Assembly (NCBI GenBank): GCA_003105185.1
Contig: PQAJ01000142.1
Location: 23,046 to 59,790 of the forward strand
DNA: 36,745 bases
Direction: 5' to 3'
DNA from: Holophagae bacterium
GTDB taxonomy: Bacteria; Acidobacteriota; Thermoanaerobaculia; Thermoanaerobaculales; Sulfomarinibacteraceae
Positions within the stretch are counted from its first letter, which is position 1; each line of letters starts with the position of its first letter. The position numbers were made by a program, and so were the translations under genes. Below the pieces are notes generated by a model, which saw only the letters and a program-made list of their open reading frames with translations, made no database searches and was not told the DNA's origin. Of this stretch, positions 2,561-26,291 are shown piece by piece.

Positions 2561-2590
2561 GGCCCGGCGGCAACGCCGGGCCGTTTTCGT
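2561..2590 (+). terminator. Intrinsic terminator after sucCD
   Basis: Perfect 9-bp stem GGCCCGGCG-GCAA-CGCCGGGCC followed by GTTTTCGTTT. Confidence 0.85.
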
Positions 2591-2798: not shown

Positions 2799-2828
2799 TT
2801 GACAGGGTCGCGCGGCAAGGAATATCTT
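2799..2828 (+). promoter_or_regulatory. Putative sigma70-like promoter for the secreted-protein array
   Basis: Consensus TTGACA at 2799-2804, 18-bp spacer, TATCTT at 2823-2828 (4/6 match), about 60 nt upstream of the ATG at 2887. Confidence 0.45.
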
Positions 2829-2886: not shown

Positions 2887-4107
2887 ATGAGACCTGCTGC
2901 CATTCACGTGGTCGGGATCGCTGCCCTGCTGCTGGTTTTCGGACCGTGGACGGCGGTGGCCCAAGAGGAAGAGGGGGGTGGCCGCGATCTGGAAGACATC
3001 CTGAAGGACGTCGTGCGCGATGCTGTCGAAGACCAGGGTTCTTCGAATCTCGGCCGCGTCGCCAGGGTGTCGGTTGTGCGACGGGCGGCGTCGGTGGTCG
3101 ATCTGAGCGTCGATGTCGAGGGGATCAGTGATCCCGGCCGGGTGACGCTGCGCGTCGAGGTCTTTGACTCGGAGTACCGCACCCTCCCCGGGTTCGAGTC
3201 CAGCCACGGCCCGATCCCAGCGGGCGACGGCAGCGTGGCAGTCAGCGTGGTCTACGGTGCAGTAGAGGACGTTCAATCGGTCGGGCTGAAGGTCGGGCTG
3301 GTCGACACCGAGACGCAGAGGATGTTCAGCCGGCGGAAGGCTGCGCTGCCGTGGGAGTGGGGCGGCGGGACAGGGGGTGGAGCGTCAGCGGGGTTGTCGA
3401 CTTTGTCGTCGCGGGGATCGGGTGACCAACCCAGTCGCCAGCCGGTCGTGGTTTCGATCGAACCGAGCCGGGTCGGCGACACGCCAGCGATGGAGATCCC
3501 GACCATCGTAGGGGTTCGCGTGGCGCAGCAGCCGACTCCGATGGCGCAGGGTCCACCGACTGGAGGCACGTCGGCCGCACCGGGTGTGCTCGGGACTGCC
3601 ACGAAGGTCCAGCCAACCGTCGTCGACCTCTACAGCGCGGCCGCGAGGGCGACGTGGACATCGGACGCCGGGCGGCTGACGTTCGGTGGTGAGACGGGTG
3701 ACACCAGGGGCTACGTGCGCGCCCTCGGCGACGCCAAGCTCAACGATGGCCAGGTCCATCACAAGGTGCTCCAGACCCACCCCGCCTTCAAGGACAACGG
3801 CCGGATCGCAGGTGCATTCGCGGTCACCGTCCCGAAGGGTGCGACTGCCGTCTCGGCCGGGGGCGGGTTCCTCCCCAACGTCACGCGATCGGACGGCGTC
3901 AAGGTCGTGGTGAAGATCGGTCGGACCGCCGCGGAGAGCACTGCGGTGGTCAGCAAGATGGTGCGGCCGGCTGACGGGATCGTGAAGATCGCAGGGGCTA
4001 TCCCGGCCGAGATGCAAGGAAAGGACGTCATCCTGACCCTCGAGGTGCAGGCCGGGCCGACATCAACGCAGGACTGGTTCGTGTGGGTGGAGCCGGCGAT
4101 CCGGTGA
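2887..4107 (+). CDS. Exported protein of unknown function, first gene of array
   Basis: Signal peptide MRPAAIHVVGIAALLLVFGPWTAVAQEEE; no recognised domain; Gly/Ser/Pro-rich central linker. Confidence 0.8.
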   Translation: MRPAAIHVVGIAALLLVFGPWTAVAQEEEGGGRDLEDILKDVVRDAVEDQGSSNLGRVARVSVVRRAASVVDLSVDVEGISDPGRVTLRVEVFDSEYRTLPGFESSHGPIPAGDGSVAVSVVYGAVEDVQSVGLKVGLVDTETQRMFSRRKAALPWEWGGGTGGGASAGLSTLSSRGSGDQPSRQPVVVSIEPSRVGDTPAMEIPTIVGVRVAQQPTPMAQGPPTGGTSAAPGVLGTATKVQPTVVDLYSAAARATWTSDAGRLTFGGETGDTRGYVRALGDAKLNDGQVHHKVLQTHPAFKDNGRIAGAFAVTVPKGATAVSAGGGFLPNVTRSDGVKVVVKIGRTAAESTAVVSKMVRPADGIVKIAGAIPAEMQGKDVILTLEVQAGPTSTQDWFVWVEPAIR

Positions 4108-4108
4108 C

Positions 4109-4828
4109 ATGACCTCTCTGCTCCTCATCCTGGTGATGGCGCAGTCCGCGACTGGGACGCCGAGTTCCGTCGCGGTCAGCCCCGACGTGCTGGCCCCCTA
4201 TCGGCCGGCAGAGCTGACCATCCGAGGTGAGGGCTTCGGGCCCGATTGCAGCGTGCTCACCGGCAGCCCTGGGAAGCTGGTCCCGGTGCACAGTCGGGTG
4301 GTCAGCGACTCCGAGATCGTCGTCGAGCTCGCGGTCGGCTTCGGCCCGAAACCGCCGAGACGGCAGCTCATTGTCGACTGCGGGGGCGGTGGCCGGAGCG
4401 ATCCGCTGTGGCTGACGATCGCGGCGGGAGGCGGCTCGCCAGTGGTGGCGGACTCCGACGCCCAGCCGGCCCTTGATGACGGTGTTGGCACCGGCAGCGG
4501 CTCTGGACTGAGCGAACATCCGCGAATCATCAGGCTCGATCCCGGGGCGATCGCAGCGGGTGAGCCGTTCACCCTGACCGTGGTCGGCGAGGCATTTCAG
4601 GAAGGCGCTGAGGTCGCAGTCCTCGCCAACATCCATGCCGGGACCTCTCGCGAACCCGAGTATCAGCCGGTCGATTTTCCGGCCGAGGTTGCTTCGGACA
4701 CGGTCTTGATCGTGGACTTCGATCGGGGGTTCGCACCCTCGCCGCGGCTCCGCTCGATCACGGTTGTGAATCCGGACGGCGGCCGCAGCCCGCCCATGTA
4801 CCTTGAAGTCACAGGGAGATTGCCATGA
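4109..4828 (+). CDS. Exported protein with two TIG/IPT-like beta-sandwich repeats
   Basis: Two internal repeats of the type '..P.....P.ELTIRGEGFGPDCSV...' and '..IIRLDPGAIAAGEPFTLTVVGEAFQEGAEV...LRSITVVNPDGGRS'; starts 1 nt after the previous stop. Confidence 0.65.
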   Translation: MTSLLLILVMAQSATGTPSSVAVSPDVLAPYRPAELTIRGEGFGPDCSVLTGSPGKLVPVHSRVVSDSEIVVELAVGFGPKPPRRQLIVDCGGGGRSDPLWLTIAAGGGSPVVADSDAQPALDDGVGTGSGSGLSEHPRIIRLDPGAIAAGEPFTLTVVGEAFQEGAEVAVLANIHAGTSREPEYQPVDFPAEVASDTVLIVDFDRGFAPSPRLRSITVVNPDGGRSPPMYLEVTGRLP

Positions 4829-6267
4829 AACGATGCGCCGTCACGATCCTGCTCGTCGGTCTCGTCGCACTGTCGGCGGCTTCGGAGGAAGTCCGAACGC
4901 TCAAGCTCTCCCCGGGCTTTGTTTCGAAGATCCAAGCCGCACAGCAGCAGCGCGACCAGGCGGTGTCGCGCGGCGGCCAGGGGCCGGCTGCGGTCGCCCT
5001 GCCGCTCGCCGATCTCGTCACGATCTCGCAGCTGAACCGGTTCGAAGGCGTCGGGTACGGTGACCTCTGCCGGCTGAGCACCAACGTCTACCCGGACGTC
5101 AACGCGGACTCGGGCATCTACTACTACTACCCCGCGCGCTGGTACCTCCACTTCGAGCCCGAGGAGGGCGGCTACCACCTGCGGATCGAGTACAAGGCGA
5201 GCTCGACGGGCGCTAACAGCGTTCTGCTGACGGCCCAGCTGACGCCGGGGTACGACCAGCACGATCTGGCGGTGCTGCAGGCCCTGCTCGACGAGTACCT
5301 GCGCTCGCAGGGAAATCAGCGGGTCCGCCCGAAGCTGCTGCCGTTGCCGGCGACTCCCGAGGCTCGGTTCCAGCTCGCGAGCTGGGACATCGAGGAGGTG
5401 ACGGTCAACGCCATCGAGCCGGACACCAACACGATCCATCTGTCGATCACCGCCGACGTCCCGACCAAGGAGCTGGTGACGTCGACCCTGCTCCACGAGG
5501 GGCTCCCCGGTTCGGTGACCCTGGTGCCGGACGTGTGGAGCGACCTGCAGACGCTGACCTCGCCGGTCGAGGGCTATGCGGAGATCCGCCTCGCTGACAT
5601 CACCGGGGGACCGACCCTGAGGTGGCCGACGACGACCTCGGGTGGGCAGGCCGAGCTCGTCAACGAGTGGCCGTTCGACATGCGGCTGTCCTATCTCGTG
5701 TACCTGCTCAGGGACCGCGACGGCGGCCTCCGGCTCCGCGGCTGGGGTCTCGGCGATCGGGTGCTCGGCCCGAAGGACACCGCGAGGATCCCCTTGTCTG
5801 CCCTCAACAGGGAGTTTGGTTCGGACTCCGCAGTCGATGCCCGATTCGTGGCCACGCTGGTTCGCAGCGAGGACGTGGGACGCAGCGTGATCGACGCCTG
5901 TACGGGCGGGGTCGGTGCGCTTCCCGTCGAGAATCTGGTCATCGACATCATGCAGCCCGAGGCGCTCTTCGAGCAGTACTCCATCTACCGGGTGGCGGTC
6001 GAGGTGCGGTCGGCTCACTTCGACCCGGAAGGCAGGCAGGTGGTCACGCGGAGCTACGTCCTCGACGGCGCCGAAACTCCGTTCACCGCCGATCCTCTGT
6101 ACCTGTGGGAGGACCAGGCCGGGGGAGACCTCTACCAGTATCGGGTCGGCGTGGTGACCAATGACGGCGTCACCCACGCCGACGAGAGCTGGCGGCGGCC
6201 GGGGAGCTTCCTGCCCTACACGATCAACATCGGCAGCGACGTGGTCGAGGCGGTGCTCGCCGAATGA
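4825..6267 (+). CDS. Exported protein, apparent distant member of the array paralogue family
   Basis: Signal peptide MKRCAVTILLVGLVALSAASEE; YYYYPARWYLHFEPEEGGYHLRIEYKA resembles the Y[YW]YLP..P.....G.P.F...KY motif of downstream genes; ATGA overlap with neighbours. Confidence 0.75.
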   Translation: MKRCAVTILLVGLVALSAASEEVRTLKLSPGFVSKIQAAQQQRDQAVSRGGQGPAAVALPLADLVTISQLNRFEGVGYGDLCRLSTNVYPDVNADSGIYYYYPARWYLHFEPEEGGYHLRIEYKASSTGANSVLLTAQLTPGYDQHDLAVLQALLDEYLRSQGNQRVRPKLLPLPATPEARFQLASWDIEEVTVNAIEPDTNTIHLSITADVPTKELVTSTLLHEGLPGSVTLVPDVWSDLQTLTSPVEGYAEIRLADITGGPTLRWPTTTSGGQAELVNEWPFDMRLSYLVYLLRDRDGGLRLRGWGLGDRVLGPKDTARIPLSALNREFGSDSAVDARFVATLVRSEDVGRSVIDACTGGVGALPVENLVIDIMQPEALFEQYSIYRVAVEVRSAHFDPEGRQVVTRSYVLDGAETPFTADPLYLWEDQAGGDLYQYRVGVVTNDGVTHADESWRRPGSFLPYTINIGSDVVEAVLAE

Positions 6268-7328
6268 GGGTTCTCTGGGCAGTGGTCGGTCTGCTGGTGG
6301 TCGCTGCGACCCCGATCGCGGCGTGGCCGGTGCTGTCGGAAGGCCGTGAGACCGCGGTCGGGTGGTGTTACCCGGACCACGAGAAGCCGCAGCTGTGGTG
6401 GCTCTCGCCGGATGCGGTGGACGTCAAGACCGACGGCGGCCATCCGGCGGTTCACCTCACGGTCTTCAGCTACCTGGGCGTCCGGGAGACAGGGGACATC
6501 GGGCGATCCAAGACCGGCGCCGTGCTGCAGTTCACGCTGGTGCTGCCTTCTGCCGCCGGCCGGCTGGCCGAAGCAGAGAGGTTGCTGGGCTCTCGGGCGG
6601 AGGTCCGTCCCCTCGTCCCCGAGCAGATCGACGCTGAGGTCGTGTTCGCAGGCGTCACCTCGCCCCGGCACGCGACCGAGACCGAGACCCAGACCGAGGC
6701 CGAAGGCGACACGAGTGAGCCAGGCGCCTGGACTGAGCGCCGGTTTGCGCTGCGGCTGACCCCGGAGGAGACCGCGGTGGTGGCCGACGCGTGGGAGCAC
6801 GGCTCGGTGATCCTGTCGGTGAACCTGGTGGCATCGGCGACAGCGCTGGCGGCGCGTCCGTCGCGCGGCCAAGAACCTGAGCCCGGGCTGACACCAATCC
6901 TCACCGACGCGATCCCGATCACGATCGATCCGGCCGCCGATTATTCCGCGGTCCGGGTCCTCGAGCTCGATGCGACCATGCCTGCGGCCTACACCTCGCT
7001 CGAGCTCGGCTGCGCCGAGCTGGCATCTTCCGGAAGCCTCTCCGATCTGTCGCGGGTGATCGCGGTCGTGGGGGCCGAGGCGATGAACGGCGACACCATC
7101 GACCAGGAGGTCCGGTTCTCCAGTGGTTCGCCGCCGGTGCAGGTGGCGAGGTTCGATCGGGCGGTGCGCCTCGAGCACGGCTACCGGCTGCGGATCGCCC
7201 GGGTCTATGCAACCGGCGCCGTGGAGGAAGAGCCGGCGCGCCGGGTCGAGGTGTGGCAGGGGTTCATCGACATCTGCAGCGTCGCCGCGGGCGGTGTCAC
7301 CGGTCTCGACCCGCGGCTCCTGTACTAG
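6264..7328 (+). CDS. Exported protein, short/divergent possible member of the paralogue family
   Basis: Signal peptide MRVLWAVVGLLVVAATPIAAWP; KPQLWWLSPDAVDVKTDGGHPAVHLTVFSY corresponds positionally to the N-terminal motif of the larger paralogues; ATGA overlap with previous gene. Confidence 0.75.
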   Translation: MRVLWAVVGLLVVAATPIAAWPVLSEGRETAVGWCYPDHEKPQLWWLSPDAVDVKTDGGHPAVHLTVFSYLGVRETGDIGRSKTGAVLQFTLVLPSAAGRLAEAERLLGSRAEVRPLVPEQIDAEVVFAGVTSPRHATETETQTEAEGDTSEPGAWTERRFALRLTPEETAVVADAWEHGSVILSVNLVASATALAARPSRGQEPEPGLTPILTDAIPITIDPAADYSAVRVLELDATMPAAYTSLELGCAELASSGSLSDLSRVIAVVGAEAMNGDTIDQEVRFSSGSPPVQVARFDRAVRLEHGYRLRIARVYATGAVEEEPARRVEVWQGFIDICSVAAGGVTGLDPRLLY

Positions 7329-7346
7329 TGGCGTGCGGAGGGAGAG

Positions 7347-9155
7347 ATGACGCAACGAATCATGGTGGTCGCTGCTTCGGTGGTCGTGCTGGTCATCGCC
7401 ACGCCGGCGTTGGGGCTCGTCTGGTACGACGTCGGCCGGCTGACGATCGACGGCGTCGAGCTCTTCCAGGACGCCGATCAGCCGAACGAGTACTACTACC
7501 TGCCGCCGGCGCCGACCCTGGCGGTGGACGCGAACGGCAACCCGAAGCTGCTGTGCGTGAAGTACATCGATCCCGAGGGCAAGGCCTCAGGTGGCCTTCT
7601 GCACCTGCTGGCGTCGCTCGAGCTCCCCGCCGACCGAGTGGCCGAGCTCGAGGAGCAGCTGAAGGAGAAGCGGCCGGGGGCGCGAGTCGTCGGCGCGCTC
7701 AGCCTGGTCGAGGCCAGGGCCGAGGAAGGCCAGCCGGTGCCGGCCTCGTTCCAGGTCGTGTCCGCGGTGCTCTCCGACACGGCGGCGGGCGGTTTCACGC
7801 GCTCGGTGATCACCTCCGGGCACGCCCCGCTCACGGCGGGGAGCCGGGCGGCCGTGGCGGCGAGCCTCGACGCGCGCGGCGCGACCCTGCTCTTCGACTC
7901 GCTAGCCGGCGTCACGTCGGATGTATCGGTCAGCATCGCCGCCGAGTACGAGGCCAGGGTCCGTGGCTACAACGCCACCGTGTCGGCCGAGGTCGCGACC
8001 ATTTACGAGCACCTCTCGGCGGTGCTCAACCGTCAGCAGGGGTACGAGAAGCGCGAGCTGCGGCAGGTCGTCGACGAGCTGTACCACGACAACGTCATCC
8101 AGATCGAGGTCTTCGACCGGACCAAGAGCCTGGGACTGGAGGCGTCGACGGTAGAGGGCATCCTCAGCCTGGTCACCGACAAGATCGTCACCCTGATGTT
8201 CGATCACCAGACCGGGCTCGCCAAGATGCCGGAGCGCGAGGTGGCGGTGGAGAAGGGCCAGATCAAGGGCCGCCAGGAGCGCGGCGCGTTCGTCAAGTGG
8301 TTCGCCGGGACGGGCGACCAGCCGTACTACACCGACGACCAGTTCGTGATGAAGAGCCGGGAGGACATCCGCCGCACCACCTTCTCCCTCAACCTTGCCT
8401 ACGACACCACGGTGCGGATGCCGGTCTACCTCTCCGGCAACATGGGCGGCCTCTACGCTGCGCACCGGAACAACCCGGACATCTTCCGGGTCGTCAACCT
8501 GGGTGACCCGTCGTTCCAGGTGCGCGAGGTTCGCTTCGTGCTCGACGGCGATTGGGCGGCCGCGTTCGAGGGCCTCGTCAACTGGGTTTCGGTGCAGCTC
8601 GTCAAGGAGTACGAGGGCGGCCAGCCTGCGGTCGATGCCCAGGCACAGCTGACCGCCAAGGATGTCGGCGAGGGCCAGCTTGACCGGGTGCTGACGTACC
8701 CCCGTCTCGGAGTCAGTGGGCCGGAGTGGTTGGGCTACCGCTACCGCGTCAGCTGGAGCCTGCTCCGCAAAGGGACGATCAGCCAGCCGAACGCCGAGGG
8801 CTGGACGGCCTCGTCGGAGCCGGTGGTCACGCTCCGGCCGCCGCTCGCGATGAGCGTGGTCGAGCTGGAGGTTGACCGCGACGCCATGATCGACCGCGGC
8901 GTGCGGGTGGGCGTGGTCGAGATTCGATCGCGGGTGGCGGGCGCCGTGGGCACCCAGCGTGTGACGGTGCTCCGCGTGACGGACGCCGAGTCGGTTGTTT
9001 CCGTGAGCGCGATCCACGATCCCGGCTCCCAGCCCGAGGTGCGGGTGACTTGGATTGCCGCCACCGGTGGCGGCCGGAGGGAAGGGGAGTGGCTCGGTAT
9101 GGCCGCAGGCTACCTGTGGGTCGAGGTGCCGGACCTGAGCGGAGGGCTGTCGTGA
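7347..9155 (+). CDS. Large exported paralogue A of the array family
   Basis: Signal peptide; EYYYLPPAPTLAVDANGNPKLLCVKYI, SDVSVSIAAEYEA, and C-terminal module FRVVNLGDPSFQVREVRFVLDGD...WLGYRYRVSWSL shared with 9152, 10896, 12993 and 15487 genes. Confidence 0.85.
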   Translation: MTQRIMVVAASVVVLVIATPALGLVWYDVGRLTIDGVELFQDADQPNEYYYLPPAPTLAVDANGNPKLLCVKYIDPEGKASGGLLHLLASLELPADRVAELEEQLKEKRPGARVVGALSLVEARAEEGQPVPASFQVVSAVLSDTAAGGFTRSVITSGHAPLTAGSRAAVAASLDARGATLLFDSLAGVTSDVSVSIAAEYEARVRGYNATVSAEVATIYEHLSAVLNRQQGYEKRELRQVVDELYHDNVIQIEVFDRTKSLGLEASTVEGILSLVTDKIVTLMFDHQTGLAKMPEREVAVEKGQIKGRQERGAFVKWFAGTGDQPYYTDDQFVMKSREDIRRTTFSLNLAYDTTVRMPVYLSGNMGGLYAAHRNNPDIFRVVNLGDPSFQVREVRFVLDGDWAAAFEGLVNWVSVQLVKEYEGGQPAVDAQAQLTAKDVGEGQLDRVLTYPRLGVSGPEWLGYRYRVSWSLLRKGTISQPNAEGWTASSEPVVTLRPPLAMSVVELEVDRDAMIDRGVRVGVVEIRSRVAGAVGTQRVTVLRVTDAESVVSVSAIHDPGSQPEVRVTWIAATGGGRREGEWLGMAAGYLWVEVPDLSGGLS

Positions 9156-10864
9156 GTCGCCACTGCCGCTGGCTGGCCGCCGTGCTGCTCGTCACGGCCA
9201 CGGCCGCGGCGCAGGAGGTGCTGCTCGATCGGTCGCTCTCGGTTGCGGGCGTCACCGTTTTCGCCTCCCGGACCGATCCCCAGGGCTGGTACTACTTGCC
9301 CGACGAGCCGCGGATCGCGACCGGCGAGCAGGGCCTGCCCGAGTTCTCGCTCGTCAAGTACGTGCTGCCGGCCGAGGCCAGCGGCGGTGGCGCGCGCGGC
9401 ATCACCTCCGCCCAGGGGGGCGGCGTCCTTCACTTCCTCGCCACCTACGGCGTGACCGAAGCTCGGCTGGCACGCGCGGAGGCGGCGCTGCGCGCCCTCG
9501 ATGACCACCGGGAGGACCGGATCCTGGGGCCGATCCAGTACCGCGCCGGCTCGTTCGCGCTGGTGTCGTCGGTGGCCGCCACCGACGGCGGCATGGCGCG
9601 GCGGGTCACCGGCGCCGGCCGCGCGCCGCTGCTCGAGGGCGGCAAGGTGGCGGTGTCGGCCGGCCTCACACCGGAGGGCGCCACCTTTCTCGAGCGCTCG
9701 CTCGAGATGGAGAACCCGGACATCTCCCTGGCCTTCTCGATGGAGATCGAGGGCTACCGGTCGCCGTACGAGGCGGACCTGGTGGTCGACTGGGACCGGG
9801 TGTTCGCGCACCAGGAGCTCGAGGCGCGGGCCAAGATCGTCTACGTCGGCGTCGAGGTTGACATGCTGATCGACGAGATGGTCACCAACGGCGCCATCCG
9901 GGTCGAGGTCAAGGGTGAGAGCTCGTCGATGGAGGCGCTGCTCGACTCGGCCTACGCCAAGGTCACCGAGATGCTGTTCGACCCGGCGCCGCCAGCGCAG
10001 GCGGAGCAGGGGGACGCCGGCGACCTCGGCAACGTCGTCGGCCAGCTTCTGGGCAGTGTGCGCCGGTCGACCGTGGATCTCTTTGCCGGCTACCAGCTGA
10101 CCCGCGTCAAGCGCAGCGGCACCGCGCGGATCAGCCTCCGTCAGCAGCGAGCCGAGCCGCTGTTCGTGCTGCTGACGGGCAACGTCGGGCCGCTGGCGCG
10201 GCAGTGGCGCGGCGACTCGCGCTTCTTCCGATCGATCAACCTCGAGGATCCGGCGTTTCGGACCCGCGAGGTGACCTTCTCCTTCGACGGCGACGCCGCC
10301 GACTTCGCGAAGGTGGTCAACCACCTGGTCGTCCAGCTTCGCAAGCGGCACGGCGACGGCTCGGAGACGATGCATGAGGGCGTGCTCGACCCCGCGACCA
10401 TCGCCGAGGCCGGCAACCGGCTGGTGTTCGCCTACGGATGGTCGGGCGAGGCCAGCCAGCAGGCGTGGCTCGGCTACGAGTGGCGCGCGGTCTGGAGCTT
10501 CCGCGGCGGCCGCTCGCACGACACCGGCTGGCAGGCCGCGGACGCGTTCGCGGTCGCGCTGAGGCCGCCGTACGAGGTCCGCACGATTCTCTTTGACGGC
10601 GAGCCGGAGACGCTGGAGAGCGCCGGGGTCAGGTCGGTGCTGGCCCGCATCGAGTGGGACTTCCTGGGCGAGGCGAAGAGCGAGCTGGTGACCTTGCGGC
10701 AGGGTCACTGGAGCGACGAGCTGGAGCTGGTGCTGGCGGCCGACAACCCCACCTACTCGGTGTTCCTGCAGTGGCATTTGCAGGACGGCTCGCAGCCGAG
10801 CCGCGGCCCCTGGGTCGAGGAGTCCGGGGTTGTCTACATCGACGAGCTTCCGGAGGCGAGGTAG
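9152..10864 (+). CDS. Large exported paralogue B of the array family
   Basis: GTG start inside GTGA overlap with previous stop; signal peptide VSRHCRWLAAVLLVTATAAAQE; GWYYLPDEPRIA...LPEFSLVKYV; EARAKIVYVGVEVDMLIDEMVTNGAIRVEVKG; FFRSINLEDPAFRTREVTFSFDGD; VVYIDELPEAR end. ORF from 9050 is an upstream extension. Confidence 0.82.
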   Translation: MSRHCRWLAAVLLVTATAAAQEVLLDRSLSVAGVTVFASRTDPQGWYYLPDEPRIATGEQGLPEFSLVKYVLPAEASGGGARGITSAQGGGVLHFLATYGVTEARLARAEAALRALDDHREDRILGPIQYRAGSFALVSSVAATDGGMARRVTGAGRAPLLEGGKVAVSAGLTPEGATFLERSLEMENPDISLAFSMEIEGYRSPYEADLVVDWDRVFAHQELEARAKIVYVGVEVDMLIDEMVTNGAIRVEVKGESSSMEALLDSAYAKVTEMLFDPAPPAQAEQGDAGDLGNVVGQLLGSVRRSTVDLFAGYQLTRVKRSGTARISLRQQRAEPLFVLLTGNVGPLARQWRGDSRFFRSINLEDPAFRTREVTFSFDGDAADFAKVVNHLVVQLRKRHGDGSETMHEGVLDPATIAEAGNRLVFAYGWSGEASQQAWLGYEWRAVWSFRGGRSHDTGWQAADAFAVALRPPYEVRTILFDGEPETLESAGVRSVLARIEWDFLGEAKSELVTLRQGHWSDELELVLAADNPTYSVFLQWHLQDGSQPSRGPWVEESGVVYIDELPEAR

Positions 10865-10883
10865 TGACCGGGCGCCCGGTCAC
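10864..10883. repeat. Perfect 20-bp palindrome in intergenic gap
   Basis: GTGACCGGGCGCCCGGTCAC is identical to its reverse complement; lies between the TAG at 10862-10864 and the RBS/ATG at 10896. Confidence 0.9.
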
Positions 10884-10895
10884 GGGAGGATTGAG

Positions 10896-12980
10896 ATGAA
10901 ACGATGGACTCGACGCGGCGCTGCCCTCGTGGCATTCCTCGCGGTGATCTCGGTCTGTGGCGTGGCGGCGGCCAAGCTCATCTACGAGGAGCTGGTGACC
11001 ATCACGCTCGACGACGGCACGTCCGTGGTCCTGGTGATGGATGACTTCGGGGTCCAGAGGCCAGAGCCGTCCGCCGGTGCGTCCGCGGTCAAGCAGGCCA
11101 AGTTCGACTACCTCGACCGGGTCCGCAGGGCGAAGGGGGTCGCGCCGGCGCCGCCGGTCACGGTCGTCCACGGCCCCGCGGCGTCCCAGGTGCAGCAGCA
11201 GCGCTACGCGCTGGCAGAGAAGAGAATGGGGGTCGGCAAGGACCTGGCGGGGATGCGTGACCACTCGAAGGGCAAGATGCTGTGGGCGGGCACCGCCGGT
11301 GCGGAGAAGCATTACTACTACCTGCCGCCGCCGCCTCGGGTAGCGCGGGACGGCGAGGGCCGACCGCAGTTCCTGTTCATGAAGTTCACCTCGGACCGGA
11401 CCGCCGAGCAGGGCGGCGTCACCGGGGGCATCCTGCACTTCCTGTGCGAGTACGGGCTGACGCCCGAGCAGGAGCGGGAGCTCGGCCAGAAGCTCGCCGC
11501 GAAGGTCAAGGGCGCCAAGGTCATGGGCGCGGTGCGCATGGAGCAGGGCACTGGAGACTCAACGTTCCGGATCGTCTCCGGGACCATGTCCGAGGGCGGC
11601 TTTGCACAGCAGATCGTGGGCTCGGGCAAGGCGCCCCTGCTGCCCGGGCAGAAGGTGGCGGCGGCGGCGCGCCTCGACGCGGTGGGCGCGGTGCTGATCG
11701 AGGAGTCACTCAAGCGGCCGACGTCTGATATTTCGGTGGAGTTCGACCTCGCCTACACCTCCTACCTGCCGGCGTTTGACGGCACCATCACCTTCGACTG
11801 GGAGATGTTCCAGGCCCATGTCGACGAGTGGACGCAGGACTACCAGCACACGGCGACGAGGAAGGGCTGGAACTGGGCGAAGGCGCGCTACGACTACGAG
11901 CACGTTTACACCTCCGACGAGCTGCGCGAGCTCTACGACTTCATGTGCGAGCACGAGGCGATCCGGGTCGAGTGGACAGAGAGCATTGTCGACGAACGGC
12001 TCGAGGCGATCCGTGAGGCGTTCTTCCGGTTCATGGAGACCTCGTTCTTCGAGCGCCAGCCGTTCGAGATCCCAGAGGACGAGGAGGAGGACGACGAGCA
12101 GATGACCTCACCGGAGGAGCGGGGCAACCGTTCCCGGTTCGACCGTTTCGTGGCCAAGGGCGAGGAAGCGATGACCAACAAGACGATCAGCATGCGGGTG
12201 ACCCTCCCGGTCAAGGTCGAGCTCGCGCTCTTTGGCAATATCTCGGGGGCGTGGTACCGGGAAGCGCGCCAGGAGTACCCGGAGCTGTTCGCCGAGGTGA
12301 ATGTCGACGATCCGTTCTTCCAGCAGCGCCAGGTGGCCTTCACCCTCGACCTCGATGCGGTCGAGATCTTCGACCAGGCCATCAACTTCGTCACTGTGGA
12401 GGTCCGCAAGCAGCGCGGCGCGGGGCGTGACTTCCACACCTCGTTCACGCTGACCAAGGACGAGATCGCCGCCAACGGCCCAACGCGAACCGTCACCTAC
12501 GCCAAGATGCGCGACGACTCGCCCGAGGTCTTCGACTACCTGGTCCGGTGGAGCCTGCGCGGCGGCGTCGAGTGGCCCGCCGACCCCACGTGGAGCCGCG
12601 GCCAGTGGGAAGGCGTGACGCTGGCCCCGCCAGTGCTGCCCCTCAACGTCGAGGCCGAGGCCGACCTGGCGGAGCTGGAGGAGCTGGGCATCACCAGGGC
12701 CACGGTCGAGGTCCGCTACCGGCAGTTCGGCAAGGACGTCACCGACAGCCGCAGCCTGGCGCTGTCGCCAGCCAAGGGCGAGCCGCTGGCCTCGATGATG
12801 ATCTTTCGTGACCGCAGCGACACCGGCTGGCAGTACCGCACCAACTTCTACCACAAGCGGCTCGGCCGCCAGCAGGGCGGTTGGCAGCGCGGCGGGGAGG
12901 ATGGGTACGTCTACTGCACGGTCCCGGAGGCCCTGCGCCTCGAGGCCGCGGTGGTGGACGCCATCCCTGCCGTGCCCTGA
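10896..12980 (+). CDS. Large exported paralogue C with ~115-aa N-terminal extension
   Basis: MKRWTRRGAALVAFLAVISVCGVAAAKLIYEELVTITLDDG...; HYYYLPPPPRVARDGEGRPQFLFMKFT; FAEVNVDDPFFQQRQVAFTLDLD; GGAGG-type RBS before ATG. Confidence 0.85.
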   Translation: MKRWTRRGAALVAFLAVISVCGVAAAKLIYEELVTITLDDGTSVVLVMDDFGVQRPEPSAGASAVKQAKFDYLDRVRRAKGVAPAPPVTVVHGPAASQVQQQRYALAEKRMGVGKDLAGMRDHSKGKMLWAGTAGAEKHYYYLPPPPRVARDGEGRPQFLFMKFTSDRTAEQGGVTGGILHFLCEYGLTPEQERELGQKLAAKVKGAKVMGAVRMEQGTGDSTFRIVSGTMSEGGFAQQIVGSGKAPLLPGQKVAAAARLDAVGAVLIEESLKRPTSDISVEFDLAYTSYLPAFDGTITFDWEMFQAHVDEWTQDYQHTATRKGWNWAKARYDYEHVYTSDELRELYDFMCEHEAIRVEWTESIVDERLEAIREAFFRFMETSFFERQPFEIPEDEEEDDEQMTSPEERGNRSRFDRFVAKGEEAMTNKTISMRVTLPVKVELALFGNISGAWYREARQEYPELFAEVNVDDPFFQQRQVAFTLDLDAVEIFDQAINFVTVEVRKQRGAGRDFHTSFTLTKDEIAANGPTRTVTYAKMRDDSPEVFDYLVRWSLRGGVEWPADPTWSRGQWEGVTLAPPVLPLNVEAEADLAELEELGITRATVEVRYRQFGKDVTDSRSLALSPAKGEPLASMMIFRDRSDTGWQYRTNFYHKRLGRQQGGWQRGGEDGYVYCTVPEALRLEAAVVDAIPAVP

Positions 12981-12992
12981 TCGGAGGCTGAC

Positions 12993-15438
12993 ATGCGACG
13001 CGCGCTGATCGTCATTGCTGCGGCCGTTCTGGTGGTTGGAACCGCGAGCGCCCAGGAGATCCTGTTCGACCAGGTGGTGGAGGCGGGTGGGTTGAAGTGC
13101 TACCCGGTGCACGGGGATTCGACGAGCTGGTACTACCTGCCGGACCAGCCGCACGTGGCGGTGGATGCCAGTGGCCGGCCGCAGTTTTCGTTCCTGATGT
13201 ACTCGAGCCCTGAGGAGCGGGGGGAGGAGGGGATCACGACGTCGCCCGGGGGCGGTGTGGCGCACATGCTGGTGGCGTACGACGTGCCGCAGGAGATGGT
13301 GAGGCGGGCGCAGAGCGAGCTGCAGCGGCAGAAGCCGGGTGCGGTCTTGAAGGGGCCGGTGGGGTACACGGACGGGACGTTCAGCCTGGTGACGGCGGTG
13401 ACGGATCGGGAGGCAGGACTGCTGCGGCGGGTGGTGGGGGTGGGGAACGCACCGGTGATGTCGGGTCACAGGGCGGCGGTGTCGATGCACCTGACGCCGG
13501 CGGGGGCGATGCTACTGTGGGAGAGCTTTCGGCAGCGGACGCCGGACGTATCGGTGAACTTCGAGATGACGGTTTCGGGGTATCGGAATCCGGTCGAGGC
13601 GGAGATGACGTTCGACTACGAGCGGATTGCCCGGACGATCGAGATCGAGGCGGGGATCGAGGCGAGGTACATCGAGGCCGACGTTGATGTGATGTTGGGG
13701 AAGATGGTGGACAACGGGGCGATCAAGATTGAGTTGAAGGGTGCGCCTCCGGAGCAGTGGGAGGAGGTGCAGAAGCTGGGGTTGGAGCTGGCGAAGCACC
13801 ACTTGTTCGAGGATTTGGGGGCGGCGCCGTTGGATCAGCTGCGGGAGGCGACGCGGAGCCGGGGGACGACTCGGCGGTCGGCGGTGGAGTGGCCGCTGGG
13901 CTGAGACGATCGAGATGGTGACGCTGCCGCCGCCGACCGAGGAGGAAGACAGGCAACGCGCAGAGGAGGCCTTCTATCGGGGGGTCCGTCTCGCACAGGC
14001 AGGGAGATGCAGGGAAGCCCTCGAGCAGTTCGAGGCGTCGTATGAGATTCTGCGAAATCGCGGCTCGATGTGGAACATGGCGCAGTGTAACTACATCCTG
14101 CGAAATTCCGAAGGGATGTTGGCCGCGATTCAGGAGCTGCGCAGTGACTTTCCAGAATATCGGGAGGACGCCGACCTCTTGGAGACCGTCAGGTTGCTGG
14201 AAACTGCGGATCGACCGCGAATGACCACGGAGCAGCGCGAACTGTTGGGACCAACCTGGCACGCGAGGTTTCAGGAGTTTAGGTCTGAGGCGCCAACACC
14301 ACGAGAGGGTCCGGAGGAAACGGGTGCCGAGTCTGAATTGGACTCCTCGGATGGGGCTCCGGAAGCACAGGCCTCGACGGAGGAGTCGCCGAGGTCAGTT
14401 CCGGGCGGAACTCCCACCCCCGCAGGTGGGGAGGCAATCCCGAGCCCGTTCGAGGAGGCTGAGTCGCCGTCGTCATCCGCAATGTCCGAGACCTCGTCGG
14501 AGGCCGCGTCCCAGCAGACGACCGCTGACGGCGAGCGTCCTTCCGCCGCGACGATCGCCACGCCGGCGCACGCGCGGACGCCGACTCCGCGCGGCCCCGC
14601 CAGCAGCCCGAAACCGACGGCAAGTGGCCAGCAGAGCCAGTCCACGTTCGCCATCACGATTGCGTTCCGGTACCGGAAGATCGAGCGGAGCGGGAAGTTC
14701 ACCTTCAGCATGCGGCAGTGGAACCGGGTGGAGCTGCCGGTGCGGTTTGCGGCGAACGTGGGGGACCTCTCGCGGTACATGGACGATGCGCGGATGTTCC
14801 GGCGGGTGAGTCTCGATGACCCGATGTTCAAGCAGCGGGAGATCCCGGTGACGGTGGACGTGGCGAGCGAGGAGGCGTTCGCGGCGATGCTGAACGCGGT
14901 GACGGTGACGCTGCGCAAGCGGCACCAGACGGGGCGGGAGACGGTGGACGAGGTGACGATCCAGCGGGCGGACTTCTCGACTGGGAAGGTGGAGACGCTG
15001 CTCTACGGGTGGGACGGGGACGACGACCGGGAGCGGTGGTTGGACTACGAGCGGCGGGTGCGGTGGAGCTACGTGGGCGGACCGGTGATCGAGGGTGGAT
15101 GGGAGCGGACGAACGCGGGTGCCTTGGTGTTGGAGCCGCCGTTGCGGCCGCGGGAGGTGAGGCTGGAGGCGGATCCGGAGGTGCTGCGGGAGCAGGGGGT
15201 GCGGGACGTGGTGGTGGAGGTGAAGTACCCGGCGGCTGGGGTCGAGCGGACGGCGCACGCGACGGTGCGGCCCGAGGACGAGGTCGGCCGCCAGGTCCTG
15301 ATGCTGTATCAGGATCCGCAGGCGCCGGGGTACAGCTACAGCTTCGACTGGCGGCTGTATGGCGGGCGGCGGGTGTCGGCGGGGCCGTTCGAGGAGACCG
15401 CGGACTACATCTACCTCGACGAGATGCCGAGGGAGTAG
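12993..15438 (+). pseudogene. Large exported paralogue D, interrupted by an apparent 1-nt insertion near 13896
   Basis: ORF 12993-13904 plus the ORF continuing to 15438 in the +1 frame together align end to end with the intact 15487-17955 gene. Copy D reads GTGGCCGCTGGGCTGAGACG where the paralogue reads GTGGCCGTGGGCTGAGACG. Could be a sequencing/assembly error rather than a true pseudogene. Confidence 0.85.
13936..14655 (+). other. Divergent cassette of paralogue D: TPR-like segment plus Ser/Thr/Pro-rich linker
   Basis: RQRAEEAFYRGVRLAQAGRCREALEQFEASYEILRNRGSMWNMAQCNYILRN... then ...PGGTPTPAGGEAIPSPFEEAESPSSSAMSETSSEAASQQTT...; flanked by blocks near-identical to paralogue E. Confidence 0.75.
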
Positions 15439-15486
15439 ACGTCTGGTGTTGAGCAACTGGCTGGTCACCGATTGCGGAGGTTCGAC

Positions 15487-17955
15487 ATGCGGCAGGCGTT
15501 CGTTCTTGTAGCTGCGCTTCTCCTGGTCGCTGGCGCCGGGTTCGGCCAGGAGATCCTGTTTGATCAGGTGGTGGAGGCTGGGGGGTTGAAGTGCTACCCG
15601 GTGCATGGGGACCCGACGAGCTGGTACTACCTGCCGGACCAGCCGCACGTGGCGGAGGATGCGAGCGGGCGGCCGCAGTTCTCGTTCTTGATGTACTCGA
15701 GCCCGGAGGAGCGGGGGGAGGAGGGGATCACGTCGTCGCCCGGGGGCGGGGTGGCGCACCTGCTGGTGGCATACGACGTGCCGCAGGAGATGGTGAGGCG
15801 GGCGCAGAGCGAGCTGCAGCGGCAGAAGCCTGGCGCGGTGCTGAAGGGACCGGTGGGGTACACGGACGGGACGTTCAGCCTGGTGACGGCGGTGACGGAT
15901 CCGGAGGCGGGGCTGCTGCGGCGGGTGTTGGGGGTGGGGAACGCGCCGGTGATGAGTGGACACAAGGCGGCGGTGTCGATGCACCTGACGCCGGCGGGGG
16001 CGATGCTGCTGTGGGAGAGCTTTCGGCAGCGGACGCCGGACGTGTCGGTGGCTTTTGAGATGACGGTGTCTGGGTATCGGAATCCGGTTGAGGCGGAGAT
16101 GACGTTCGACTACGAGCGGATCGCGCGGACGATCGAGATCGAGGCGGGGATCGAGGCGAGGTACATCGAGGCTGACGTTGATGTGATGTTGGGGAAGATG
16201 GTGGACAACGGGGCGATCAAGATCGAGCTGAAGGGTGCGCCGCCGGAGCAGTGGGAATCGGTGCAGAAGCTGGGGTTGGAGCTGGCGAAGAACCACCTGT
16301 TCGAGGACTTGGGGGCGGCGCCGTTGGAGCAGGTGCGGGAGGCGGCGCGGGGGAGCGGGACGACTCGGCGGTCGGCGGTGCAGTGGCCGTGGGCTGAGAC
16401 GATCGAGATGGTGACCCTGCCGCCGCCAACCGACGAGGACGACCGCCAGCGGGCTGACGAGATCCGCAGTCGTGGCCTCCGTTTCTTTGACGTGAGCAGA
16501 TATGGAGAAGCACTGCAGGAGTACGAGAGGGCCTATGCGATCGATCCATCCGACGGCACCGTTTGGATGATGACCCTGTGCCACCTCCTGCTCGGCCAGC
16601 GCGAGCAGGGGTTGCAGCGCCTCGATGAGTACATCGAGCTGGCCGGGGTGGACGGATCGGCCTTCGACGCAGCGCGCCGCGCAATCGAGGATTCGCCCGA
16701 GTCCACGTTCACGTCGGGGGCACAGGCCGATCGATACCGCCGGCGCGAGCTCGTTGACGATCTTATCGACGCCTTCGAGTCGGCGGCTCTCCTGCCTCCC
16801 TCCGGCGACGGGACGGCCGCTGACGAGGATCGAGCTGAGCCGGCAGCGGCGGCCGAGGAGCCAGAGGCAGAGCCGGCCCCTGAGGAGGGCGACGGGGAAA
16901 CCGCGCTGGTAGGGCAGGGGGGCGGGGAGGAGGAGGGCGAGGAGGAGGCCGAGCCGCGGTCGCCGATCCGGACCGAGCTGACGCGGCCAGGTGCGGGCGA
17001 CGCGGACCGCCTCGACCTCCGGGAGGCGCCGGAGGAGGACGCTGGCGAGCCGGAGCTGCAGCGGATCTCGCCGTCGACGCGGGCGCGTCCGAGCAGCGGC
17101 GAGGATGCGGCCCGCAGCGGGACGGCCGGAGCTGCACGCGAGGAAGCTGAGGACGAGCAGGAGCAGGTCCGGGTGACGATCGCGTTCCGGTACCGGAAGA
17201 TCGAGCGCAGTGGGACGTTCACGTTCAGCATGCGGCAGTGGAACCGGGTGGAGCTGCCGGTGCGGTTCGCCGCGAACGTAGGCGACCTTTCGCGGTACAT
17301 GGACGACGCGCGGATGTTCAAGCGGGTGAGCCTGAACGATCCGATGTTCAAGCAGCGGGAGATCCCGGTGACGGTGGACGTGGCGAGCGAGGAGGCGTTT
17401 GCCGCGATGCTGAACGCGGTGACGGTGACGCTGCGCAAGCGGCACCAGAGCGGTCGGGAGACGCTTGACGAGGTGACGATCCAGCGGACGGACTTCTCGT
17501 CGGGGGAGGTCGAGACGCTGCTCTACGGGTGGGATGGTGACGACGATCGGGAACGCTGGTTGGACTACGAGCAGCGGGTGAGGTGGAGCTACGTGGGGGG
17601 GCCGGTGATCGAGGGTGGTTGGGAGCGGACGAACGCGGGGGCGCTGGTGCTCGAGCCGCCGCTGCGGCCGCGCGAGGTGAGGCTGGAGGCGGACCCGGAG
17701 GTTTTGCGGGAGCAGGGTGTGAGGGACGTGGTGGTGGAGGTGAGGTACCCGGCGGCCGGAGTCGAGCGGACGGCGACCGCGACGGTGCGTCCGGAGGACG
17801 AGGTGGGGAGGCAGGTGCTGGTGCTGTACCAGGATCCGCAGGCGCCGGGGTACCGTTACAGCTTTGACTGGCGGATGTACGGAGGCCGGCGGGTGTCGGC
17901 GGGCCCGTTCGAGGACACGGCGGACTACATCTACCTCGACGAGATCCCGCGGTGA
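15487..17955 (+). CDS. Large exported paralogue E, intact
   Basis: MRQAFVLVAALLLVAGAGFGQEILFDQVVEAGGLKCYPVHGDPTSWYYLPDQPHVA...; CGGAGG RBS before ATG 15487; near-identical N- and C-terminal modules to paralogue D. Confidence 0.88.
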   Translation: MRQAFVLVAALLLVAGAGFGQEILFDQVVEAGGLKCYPVHGDPTSWYYLPDQPHVAEDASGRPQFSFLMYSSPEERGEEGITSSPGGGVAHLLVAYDVPQEMVRRAQSELQRQKPGAVLKGPVGYTDGTFSLVTAVTDPEAGLLRRVLGVGNAPVMSGHKAAVSMHLTPAGAMLLWESFRQRTPDVSVAFEMTVSGYRNPVEAEMTFDYERIARTIEIEAGIEARYIEADVDVMLGKMVDNGAIKIELKGAPPEQWESVQKLGLELAKNHLFEDLGAAPLEQVREAARGSGTTRRSAVQWPWAETIEMVTLPPPTDEDDRQRADEIRSRGLRFFDVSRYGEALQEYERAYAIDPSDGTVWMMTLCHLLLGQREQGLQRLDEYIELAGVDGSAFDAARRAIEDSPESTFTSGAQADRYRRRELVDDLIDAFESAALLPPSGDGTAADEDRAEPAAAAEEPEAEPAPEEGDGETALVGQGGGEEEGEEEAEPRSPIRTELTRPGAGDADRLDLREAPEEDAGEPELQRISPSTRARPSSGEDAARSGTAGAAREEAEDEQEQVRVTIAFRYRKIERSGTFTFSMRQWNRVELPVRFAANVGDLSRYMDDARMFKRVSLNDPMFKQREIPVTVDVASEEAFAAMLNAVTVTLRKRHQSGRETLDEVTIQRTDFSSGEVETLLYGWDGDDDRERWLDYEQRVRWSYVGGPVIEGGWERTNAGALVLEPPLRPREVRLEADPEVLREQGVRDVVVEVRYPAAGVERTATATVRPEDEVGRQVLVLYQDPQAPGYRYSFDWRMYGGRRVSAGPFEDTADYIYLDEIPR
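16428..17175 (+). other. Divergent cassette of paralogue E: TPR-like segment plus acidic linker
   Basis: RSRGLRFFDVSRYGEALQEYERAYAIDPSDGTVWMMTLCHLLLGQREQGLQRLDEYIE... then AEEPEAEPAPEEGDGETALVGQGGGEEEGEEEAEPRSP. Confidence 0.75.
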
Positions 17956-17965
17956 GGGGGCAGCC

Positions 17966-18856
17966 ATGGGATCACTTGCCAAACTCAACGTGGCGGTAGT
18001 GCTCGTGGTCGCTCTGTCGCTCGCGATCACCGCAGACGCGTCGCTCGAGGATCGGGGCGAGTTCCTCTTCCGGGAGGGAGTCCGGCTCGCGAGCGATGGG
18101 GACTACCAGGGCGCCCTTGAGCACTTCGAGCGTGCAATGGCGTACACGCCAAGGCTCAACGTCCTCTGGAACATCGCATGCTGCCACGTGGTGCTCGGGA
18201 ACCGGGATCTGGCGGTCGCGTGTCTCGACCGGTACATGGAGCACGACCTGGCCTTTCAGGAGAGCGCCGAGATGCAGGCTGCGGTGGCCGGCGTTGAGGC
18301 CGAGCCTGCGGACATGCCGGATGTTCGCCGGCGAGGGCAGCTCTGGGATCGCATTGCCGTTGCCGGCCAGGCGGTCGAGAAGGGCGAGGCGACGGCTGCC
18401 CCTGCCGAGCTGCGGCTGTACGGCGTCGGCAGCCGCAGCGTGAGCTACAAGACTGGTGGCGACCGCACCAGCCCGGAGGGGCAGCGCGGACGGGAGCTCA
18501 ACAACCAGGCCCTCGAGCTGTACCGCGACCGGGGTCCCGAGGAGGCGCTGCCGACGATGGAGAGGGTGCTGGCCTATGTCGCGAATCCCATCGCGTACCA
18601 CAACATGGCCCAGATTCACTTGAAGCTGGGCCATCGTGACCTCGCTCTGGACTTTCTCGACCTCTTCCAACAGCGGCTGCCACGGCTCCTCGAGAGCGAC
18701 GCCTTCCAGGGACTCATGAGCGACATCGCCGATGCGCCGGTCGTGATGGACGCAGCGACCGCTCAAGGCTTCGTCGATCGCCTTGACCCCGCGTGCGAGT
18801 GGGCACTGTCCCCGACGACACCGATGGTGCGCACGGACAGCGAGCACGGGCCTTAG
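17966..18856 (+). CDS. Exported TPR-repeat protein 1
   Basis: Signal peptide MGSLAKLNVAVVLVVALSLAITADAS; RGEFLFREGVRLASDGDYQGALEHFERAMAYTPRLNVLWNIACCHVVLGNRDLAVACLDRYMEHD. Confidence 0.85.
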   Translation: MGSLAKLNVAVVLVVALSLAITADASLEDRGEFLFREGVRLASDGDYQGALEHFERAMAYTPRLNVLWNIACCHVVLGNRDLAVACLDRYMEHDLAFQESAEMQAAVAGVEAEPADMPDVRRRGQLWDRIAVAGQAVEKGEATAAPAELRLYGVGSRSVSYKTGGDRTSPEGQRGRELNNQALELYRDRGPEEALPTMERVLAYVANPIAYHNMAQIHLKLGHRDLALDFLDLFQQRLPRLLESDAFQGLMSDIADAPVVMDAATAQGFVDRLDPACEWALSPTTPMVRTDSEHGP

Positions 18857-18990
18857 GTGGTCGGCGCCGAGATGCAGGAGCGGGCGAGACTGGTGGTCGC
18901 GTTTGGATGCGGTGTGACGGGCGGACCGGAGTGCCCGAGGGCCCGGCGAAATCGTGGACCTCGCAGGAATCGAGAGGTAAAGGGGGGGCC

Positions 18991-19887
18991 ATGACAATGC
19001 GAACCTGGTGTCTCGTGGCGGCGGTTGTCGTCGCCGTGGCCGTCGCGCTGGGAGCGTACGCATCGATGGGGGATCGCGGCGAGGAGCTGTTCCGGGAGGG
19101 CGTGCGGCTCGCCGGCGAGGGGGACTACGAGGGCGCTGTGGCGTTCTTCGAGCGCACCATGGCCTACACGCCCACGGTCAACGTGCTCTGGAACATCGCG
19201 TGCTGCCACGTCGTGCTCGGCAATCGGGACCTGGCGGTTTCCTGCCTCGATCGGTACATGGAGCACGACACGGCGTTCCAGGAGAGCGCCGAGATGCAGG
19301 CTGTCGTGGCAGCGATCGCCGCCGAGCCGCACAACATCCCGAACCTCGACCGGCGCGGCGAGCTGTGGAACGGGGTCGAGGCGGCGAGCCGGGCGGTGGA
19401 GGAGGGCCGGTCCACGCCGGCAACTGCCGAGCAGCGGCAGTACGGCGTGAGCGGTCGCGGCGCTCGGGCCAAGACCGGTGACGCCACCGTGGAGGGCATG
19501 CAATCTCTGATCCTGACTGCTGACCTCGCCGAACGGGCGAGAGAGGACGACCTCGAGGGGGCCTTGGCGTACGCGGAGAGAGCGCTCGCCTACGGCTCGC
19601 ATTCGAATCTGTACTGGAACCTCGCCAGCGCTCACCTCATGCTCGGCCACCGCGACATGACACTCGCATTCTTGGATCTCTACCAGCAGAGGAACCCACA
19701 GGTGCGCGAGAGCGCTGAGTTTCAGCAGGTCATGGCCGATCTCGCCGATGCACCGCCCACGGTCGGCAGCGGGCTCGCGGACCGCCTGTATGCGCGGCTC
19801 AACAGCGCGGTCGATCGGGCCCTCCCCCCGAGGCCGACTCCCTCGGCGAGGCCGCCGGTGCGCACCGATGTGGGGGGCGAGGAGTAG
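18991..19887 (+). CDS. Exported TPR-repeat protein 2, paralogue of the preceding gene
   Basis: MTMRTWCLVAAVVVAVAVALGAYASMGDRGEELFREGVRLAGEGDYEGAVAFFERTMAYTPTVNVLWNIACCHVVLGNRDLAVSCLDRYMEHDTAFQESAEMQAVV. Confidence 0.85.
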   Translation: MTMRTWCLVAAVVVAVAVALGAYASMGDRGEELFREGVRLAGEGDYEGAVAFFERTMAYTPTVNVLWNIACCHVVLGNRDLAVSCLDRYMEHDTAFQESAEMQAVVAAIAAEPHNIPNLDRRGELWNGVEAASRAVEEGRSTPATAEQRQYGVSGRGARAKTGDATVEGMQSLILTADLAERAREDDLEGALAYAERALAYGSHSNLYWNLASAHLMLGHRDMTLAFLDLYQQRNPQVRESAEFQQVMADLADAPPTVGSGLADRLYARLNSAVDRALPPRPTPSARPPVRTDVGGEE

Positions 19888-20270: not shown

Positions 20271-20554
20271 GCACTCAAACTGCGAGACGCGGCCCGGGAC
20301 TTCGGCGCCCAGATCACGCAAGCGCCATCGACGTCGACGAGAGCGCCGGCCGCAACTTCGACGAGATCCTGCGGGCCATCGACTCCCTCCAATTCACCAG
20401 CGACTACGAGGTGGTGACCCCGGTGAACTGGGCCAGGGGACGGGACGTGATGATCCTGCCGACGGTGTCGATCGAGCTGGCCATGAGGCGCTTCCCGCGG
20501 GGCTGGAGGGAGCAGAACGCGTACATCAGGTTGGTTTCCGACCCGCGACGGTAG
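20271..20554 (+). pseudogene. Internally deleted 1-Cys (Prx6-type) peroxiredoxin remnant
   Basis: 20271-20321 encodes ALKLRDAARDFGAQITQ (Prx6 N-terminus-like). 20324-20554, in another frame, encodes AIDVDESAGRNFDEILRAIDSLQFTSDYEVVTPVNWARGRDVMILPTVSIELAMRRFPRGWREQNAYIRLVSDPRR* (Prx6 C-terminus-like). The active-site region is missing. Confidence 0.78.
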
Positions 20555-22367: not shown

Positions 22368-22374
22368 CTCGGGC

Positions 22375-26200: not shown

Positions 26201-26291
26201 TCTCCGTGGTTCACCCGACGATGGTAGGCAATGAGCCCCCCACCGGCAATCCCCAAGGCATCGGACAGCCGGCGCGGACCTGCCGTGGCGA

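What the first reader, a model, noticed from the sequence alone, without database searches (positions are those of the whole stretch)
2887..19887. 17-kb array of apparently exported, paralogous proteins with no recognisable known system
Seen directly: 11 genes on one strand, mostly with overlaps or gaps under 50 nt (one gap of 134 nt), each with a plausible signal peptide. Five large members share the same architecture and two smaller ones resemble its N-terminal part. Two stand-alone secreted TPR proteins close the array and a TIG-like protein lies near the start. No transporter, regulator, enzyme or membrane-anchor motif was recognised inside. Inference: co-expressed components of one extracytoplasmic multi-subunit assembly (surface coat, filament or scaffold), with TPR modules mediating subunit contacts. 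The function is unknown.
Basis: partly seen in the sequence, partly recalled or inferred. Interest (0 to 1): 0.85.

Follow-up and report, generated by a model that had tools for sequence, protein, structure and literature searches.

The report
Exported paralogue operon, undescribed protein family
An acidobacterium carries an operon of exported, mutually related proteins from a family that the databases searched here do not describe; distant bacteria keep the same four core genes in the same order, usually next to a gene for a protein-cutting or wall-cutting enzyme or with protein-binding TPR repeats, which suggests a modular extracellular machine of unknown purpose.

Summary
The array is real: 11 same-strand genes (2887-19887), 10 with intact frames that begin with a signal-peptide-like N-terminus. 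One correction: 12993-15438 is one gene broken by a 1-nt insertion near 13894, not a short N-terminal paralogue. Genes A, B, C, D1, D2 and, more divergently, g4 belong to one family: an N-terminal domain plus tandem beta-sandwich repeats (two in A-D). It has no Pfam, NCBIfam, PADLOC or PDB-sequence match and no credible fold match to a pLDDT-89 model. The A-B-C-D order recurs in Thermoanaerobaculia, Armatimonadota and Bacteroidota; A and C each form one clade across phyla. Distribution is patchy. In one branch (window included) D carries a TPR insert; in the other D lacks TPRs and is followed, coupled, by an exported hydrolase gene (HExxH metallopeptidase-like, subtilase or amidase). Tandem D copies are 93-95% identical except for a 32%-identical insert. 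Signal-less members elsewhere form arrays beside caspases, subtilases or EAD1-trypsin/STAND genes. Best reading: a secreted hetero-oligomer whose D subunit presents a variable interaction or hydrolase module. The complex and its target are inferred, not shown.

The parts
2561..2582 (+). Terminator-like hairpin (9 G-C pairs, T-rich tail) after sucD, separating sucCD from the array
   Evidence: consensus scan only, total number found not above shuffles
2799..2828 (+). Promoter-like site TTGACA-18-TATCTT, the only one on either strand of the array region
   Evidence: one found, one expected by chance, so suggestive by position only
2887..4107 (+). g1: exported 406-aa protein; its C-terminal domain is shared with relatives, fused to a g3-like region in Aminicenantes
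   Evidence: no Pfam/NCBIfam hit
4109..4828 (+). g2: exported 239-aa TIG-like / choice-of-anchor Z repeat protein
   Evidence: (NF058597 E 1.8e-11)
4825..6267 (+). g3: exported 480-aa protein; homologues carry one C-terminal beta-sandwich unit of the family
   Evidence: profile link weak
6264..7328 (+). g4: exported 354-aa divergent short member of the family
7347..9155 (+). A subunit (g5), N-domain plus two beta-sandwich repeats
   Evidence: (A clade support 100)
9152..10864 (+). B subunit (g6), N-domain plus two beta-sandwich repeats; the protein modelled (pLDDT 89)
10896..12980 (+). C subunit (g7), extended N-terminus, N-domain plus two beta-sandwich repeats
   Evidence: (C clade support 100)
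12993..15438 (+). D1 subunit gene, broken into two frames (12993-13904 and 13915-15438) by one extra base near 13894; N-domain, TPR/low-complexity insert, two repeats
15487..17955 (+). D2 subunit (g9), 822 aa, intact: N-domain, TPR/low-complexity insert, two repeats
17966..18856 (+). g10: exported stand-alone TPR protein, homologous to the D inserts
18991..19887 (+). g11: exported stand-alone TPR protein, 54% identical to g10 (start 18988 or 18991)

Best explanation
The block is one operon for an exported hetero-oligomeric complex built from four ancient paralogues (A, B, C, D), with accessory exported proteins g1-g4. Each A-D protein has the family N-domain plus two tandem beta-sandwich repeats that probably make the subunit contacts. 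D is the presenting subunit: between its N-domain and its repeats it carries a rapidly diversifying TPR insert, and stand-alone TPR proteins of the same kind (g10, g11) are co-encoded; in the sister branch D lacks the TPRs and the operon instead ends with an exported hydrolase gene. I therefore propose that the complex assembles outside the cytoplasmic membrane and positions a variable effector or binding module against protein or cell-wall targets. Shown: the family, architecture, N-terminal export-like sequences, conserved order, insert diversification and the TPR/hydrolase split. Inferred: a physical complex, docking on D, the target, and any role in conflict or in turnover of extracellular material.
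For: A-B-C-D order in window, G155, G144, G254, G244, G218, four Armatimonadota genomes and a Bacteroidia genome; A and C each one clade with support 100 across phyla, B plus D joined at 99. Two repeats in every intact A-D protein. N-terminal signals. D1 versus D2: N part 95%, insert 32%, C part 93% identical; stand-alone TPR proteins match the inserts (E about 1e-6 to 1e-10) and not the neighbouring sulfatase TPRs. TPR signal in D of window, G155-D1, G144 (weak), G254 and Aminicenantes, none in G244, G218, Armatimonadota or Bacteroidia. In those latter genomes the next same-strand gene, from a 4-nt overlap to a 44-nt gap, is a secreted S8 subtilase (G244, E 3.5e-23), Amidase_2 (G218, E 7e-19) or a HExxH protein with invariant HEL.H.QD and a downstream E-x-I-A. 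Signal-less arrays sit beside caspases, subtilases and EAD1-trypsin/STAND genes.
Against: No complex, expression or localisation data. Export calls are heuristic. The HExxH proteins have no Pfam match above cut-off, so they are peptidase-like by motif only. B and D are not cleanly resolved as clades. The TPR versus hydrolase split follows phylogeny closely, so it reflects few independent events. The window itself encodes no hydrolase in the array. D1 is broken in this assembly. Low complexity in part of the D insert inflates its divergence, although the TPR part alone is also only 35% identical over 60 residues.
Confidence: 0.45

Rival explanations
1. It is a surface coat, filament or matrix scaffold: the paralogues polymerise on the cell surface and TPR modules lock subunits together.
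For: Exported paralogues with tandem Ig-like repeats and a TIG-like partner are common in surface structures (general knowledge); no catalytic motif is evident in the conserved columns.
Against: Patchy distribution, no anchor, S-layer or pilin family, hydrolase genes in the operon of the sister branch, insert diversification between tandem copies, signal-less relatives beside caspases.
Confidence: 0.2
2. It is the exported arm of a protease-linked biological conflict system: the complex senses or engages a competitor, predator or phage and unleashes a hydrolase or TPR-bound partner.
For: Signal-less members of the family form arrays with two Peptidase_C14 genes (G396), two S8 subtilases (G222), and EAD1-trypsin, EAD1-AAA, STAND-like NTPase, PLD and tyrosinase genes (Paracoccus plasmid); Amidase_2 and subtilase in exported operons; patchy distribution; variable D insert. 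EAD1 and STAND components are known parts of conflict systems (PMC7159879).
Against: No NTPase, EAD or protease lies in the window array. PADLOC shows no match for the family. Proximity on the Paracoccus plasmid may be coincidence.
Confidence: 0.2
3. It is an extracellular polymer or protein degradation or uptake scaffold whose clients are bound by TPR modules and digested by associated hydrolases for nutrition; the nearby sulfatases belong to the same function.
For: Exported hydrolases in relatives; two sulfatase-TPR genes and a PpiC-type foldase follow the array on the other strand.
Against: The sulfatases are convergent and their TPRs do not match the array TPRs; gene lists of the relatives' loci gave no sign of them there; no TonB or SusD partner seen.
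Confidence: 0.12
4. The array is decaying in this organism: D1 is already frameshifted and the block is no longer functional.
For: Single-base insertion in D1; the Kiritimatiellae copy is interrupted by transposase-like genes and stops.
Against: All other ten genes are open, D2 is intact, G155 keeps the corresponding genes open, and the lesion may be an assembly error in a 316-contig draft.
Confidence: 0.07

Closest known systems
NTP-dependent and EAD-based bacterial conflict systems (Kaur et al. 2020, PMC7159879; 2021, PMC8195603)
   Same: Signal-less relatives of the family lie beside their typical parts: EAD1-trypsin, a STAND-like NTPase, caspases, subtilases.
   Different: The window array has no NTPase, EAD or effector peptidase, and its products appear exported; term searches in the two papers returned no description of this family.
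TPR scaffold/adaptor proteins
   Same: g10, g11 and the D insert match TPR models.
   Different: TPRs here are exported, inserted between two parts of another domain architecture, and diversify between tandem copies.
NF058597 choice-of-anchor Z repeat / IPT-TIG domain proteins
   Same: g2 matches above the curated cut-off.
   Different: Only g2; the core A-D subunits do not match.
Multi-Ig chains such as complement C3/alpha-2-macroglobulin or FnIII receptors
   Same: Tandem beta-sandwich units; top Foldseek rows.
   Different: TM-scores about 0.1 with rmsd mostly above 20 A: no real structural match, and nothing matched the N-domain on its own.

Membership tests
EAD/STAND-type conflict system | NTPase core (STAND, MoxR-vWA, GTPase) in the operon | tested here: not met
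   Pfam scans of all window array genes
EAD/STAND-type conflict system | Effector-associated domains or effector peptidase in the locus | tested here: not met
   Not in the window; present beside signal-less relatives
EAD/STAND-type conflict system | Protects or kills on invasion | not testable with these tools
   Needs experiments
Known anti-phage defence families (PADLOC) | Match of core proteins to a PADLOC model | tested here: not met
   No match for A, B, C, D2
S-layer or cell-wall-anchored surface protein | SLH, LPXTG, pilin or other surface family | tested here: not met
   No such Pfam/NCBIfam hit
Choice-of-anchor Z / TIG (g2 only) | Score above curated cut-off | tested here: met
   NF058597 43.9 bits, cut-off 30; Pfam TIG below cut-off
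TPR proteins (g10, g11) | TPR models above cut-off | tested here: met
   TPR_2 47.8 and 33.6 bits, cut-off 27
The A-B-C-D family described here | N-domain with YYYLP..P and GG..H motifs plus two tandem beta-sandwich repeats, in order A-B-C-D | tested here: met
Gluzincin-type metallopeptidase (partner gene in Armatimonadota and Bacteroidia) | HExxH plus downstream Glu ligand | tested here: inconclusive
   Motifs invariant in five aligned sequences, but no Pfam match above cut-off and no PDB match

The most novel reading that the evidence does not exclude
An undescribed protein family with a cytoplasmic branch wired to caspase, subtilase or trypsin effectors and an exported branch that moved the same multi-subunit scaffold outside the cell, with the D subunit swapping TPR or hydrolase modules: an extracellular, modular proteolytic conflict system.
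Probability: 0.2. Interest if true: 0.88.

Novelty: categorically new. Interest (0 to 1): 0.62.

Why it matters
The core proteins match no family in Pfam, NCBIfam or PADLOC and no solved sequence or fold, yet four distinct paralogues stay together in one order across three phyla, which is the usual signature of an obligate complex. The link between an exported scaffold and arrays beside caspases and EAD/STAND genes gives a concrete way to test whether bacteria use an extracellular proteolytic assembly.

Tried and rejected
Function by family libraries: no hit for A-D, g1, g3, g4. PDB by sequence or profile: none credible; the small 'Bagel/Cake' scores rest on one 26-residue stretch with no stretch passing on its own. 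Two AlphaFold models (pLDDT 73, then 89) and three Foldseek searches: only meaningless multi-Ig alignments, TM about 0.1. Pore-former idea (long strands in the first, poor model, some cholesterol-dependent cytolysin rows in Foldseek): dropped, since the better model shortens those strands and TM-scores are about 0.1. Complement/alpha-2-macroglobulin resemblance: rejected for the same reason. Viral or phage origin: no relative in phages or viral contigs. Non-coding RNA or repeat explanation: no Rfam hit, only trivial tandem repeats. Literature searches found no description. One self-trained gene call on L031 picked antisense frames and was replaced by the first calls. g3 as a full N-domain member was not accepted, because profile comparison gave only 33-35%.
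Full report
Observation. The window is G000:C142:23046-59790 of a 4.2-Mb draft genome. Its closest named relatives are Acidobacteria/Thermoanaerobaculia MAGs. Between sucD and two sulfatase genes lie 11 genes on one strand at 2887-19887. Spacings are +1, -4, -4, +18, -4, +31, +12, +48, +10 and about +131/134 nt. A terminator-like hairpin follows sucD at 2561-2582 and a promoter-like site lies at 2799-2828; neither type of site is more frequent than in shuffles, so they are suggestive by position only. Every intact frame starts with a signal-peptide-like N-terminus and none has a lipobox or a strong later transmembrane segment (heuristic).

One correction matters. The 303-aa ORF 12993-13904 and the ORF ending at 15438 are one gene, D1. 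Against its neighbour D2, D1 has one extra base near 13894 that closes the frame. In G155 both copies are open through this region. Whether the lesion is real or an assembly error cannot be told here.

The family. [quoted passage not shown] g4 is a divergent short member (hhalign 99.1%, E 4e-19). g3 homologues share one C-terminal unit, but the profile link is weak. The C-terminal region is a tandem repeat: every intact A-D protein examined has exactly two units, g3 and g4 homologues one, and signal-less relatives one to five. The AlphaFold model of B with 68 sequences has mean pLDDT 89 and pTM 0.63, is beta-rich and ends in beta-sandwich-like units. No fold match is credible: TM-scores are about 0.1 to 0.17. 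The family has no Pfam, NCBIfam, PADLOC or PDB-sequence hit.

Conservation. The same order g1-g2-g3-g4-A-B-C-D is present in G155 and G144, two other genera of the family, and A-B-C-D in G254, G244 and G218, in Armatimonadota (G284/L073, G737, G740, G763) and in a Bacteroidia MAG (G286/L076). Upstream flanking genes differ between the loci. A tree of 64 members puts all A and all C proteins in one clade each (support 100), across phyla; B and D together are supported at 99 but not fully separated; the five labels need 4 changes on the tree against 37.8 in shuffles. The label table lumps the Aminicenantes rows, which are exported, with the cytoplasmic group, a labelling slip of mine that does not affect A-D. 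Distribution is patchy: 3 of 20 genomes in the family, 9 of 149 in the class, 4 of 149 and 7 of 297 in the phylum, 5 of 201 in the phylum of the Armatimonadetes record, 4 of 346 in that of the Bacteroidia record, 3 of 338 in that of the Kiritimatiellae record.

Variable module. In the window, G155, G144, G254 and Aminicenantes, D has an insert between N-domain and repeats with TPR similarity (strong in G254 and Aminicenantes, clear in window and G155-D1, weak in G144 and G155-D2). In the window D1 and D2 are 95% identical in the N part and 93% in the C part but 32% in the insert, and the TPR stretch alone is 35% identical over 60 residues. The stand-alone TPR proteins g10 and g11 (54% identical) match these inserts, not the sulfatase TPRs. 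In G244, G218, Armatimonadota and Bacteroidia no TPR is found in D, and the gene right after D (overlap of 4 nt to a gap of 44 nt) is an exported hydrolase: S8 subtilase in G244 and Amidase_2 in G218, and a HExxH protein in four Armatimonadota genomes and G286, with invariant HEL.H.QD and a downstream E-x-I-A. The last is peptidase-like by motif only.

Signal-less branch. Relatives without signal peptides form arrays in G221/G222 with two S8 subtilases, in a Bacteroidota genome, G396, next to two Peptidase_C14 genes (E 3e-18 and 3e-19), on a Paracoccus plasmid after EAD1-trypsin, EAD1-AAA and STAND-like NTPase genes and with PLD and tyrosinase genes, and on a Pararhizobium plasmid. EAD1 and STAND proteins are components of described conflict systems (PMC7159879); term searches in that paper and its 2021 successor did not return this family.

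Interpretation. Fixed order of ancient paralogues and a shared two-repeat architecture point to an obligate hetero-oligomer. The D insert is the fast-changing element and trades places with an operon-encoded hydrolase in the other branch, so I infer that D presents a variable effector or binding module. I put 0.45 on this mechanism. A coat or filament (0.2), an exported conflict system (0.2), a degradation scaffold (0.12) and decay (0.07) remain; some overlap with the main reading. Nothing here shows a complex, expression, a substrate or a phenotype.

Noticed in passing
12993-15438: Single-base insertion near 13894 breaks D1 in this assembly; the adjacent copy D2 and both copies in G155 are open there.
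   Followed up: yes
13000-18000: GC skew is +0.13 to +0.31 over the D genes against about 0.05 in most of the rest of the window.
   Followed up: no
20526-26302 (minus strand): Two sulfatase proteins with C-terminal TPRs followed by a PpiC-type rotamase protein; TPRs unrelated to those of the array.
   Followed up: partly
28382-29029: Small exported-looking protein with a dual-specificity/tyrosine phosphatase-like domain (PTP-NADK, DSPc).
   Followed up: no
29540-30115: YgjP-like metallopeptidase domain gene (Pfam E 4e-20).
   Followed up: no
L074:9178-17433: Kiritimatiellae copy of the cassette is broken by two transposase-like genes and several stops.
   Followed up: partly
L119:9789-11664 (minus strand): Two caspase-domain (Peptidase_C14) genes directly after a signal-less array of this family in a Bacteroidota genome.
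   Followed up: partly
L083:5378-10265: EAD1-trypsin, EAD1-AAA and STAND-like NTPase genes directly before an array of this family on Paracoccus plasmid pNSM5TCa.
   Followed up: partly
L080 / G218: Record titled Deltaproteobacteria (JAHZIX010000018.1) is placed by the genome search in the window's own class; probably a mislabelled MAG.
   Followed up: no
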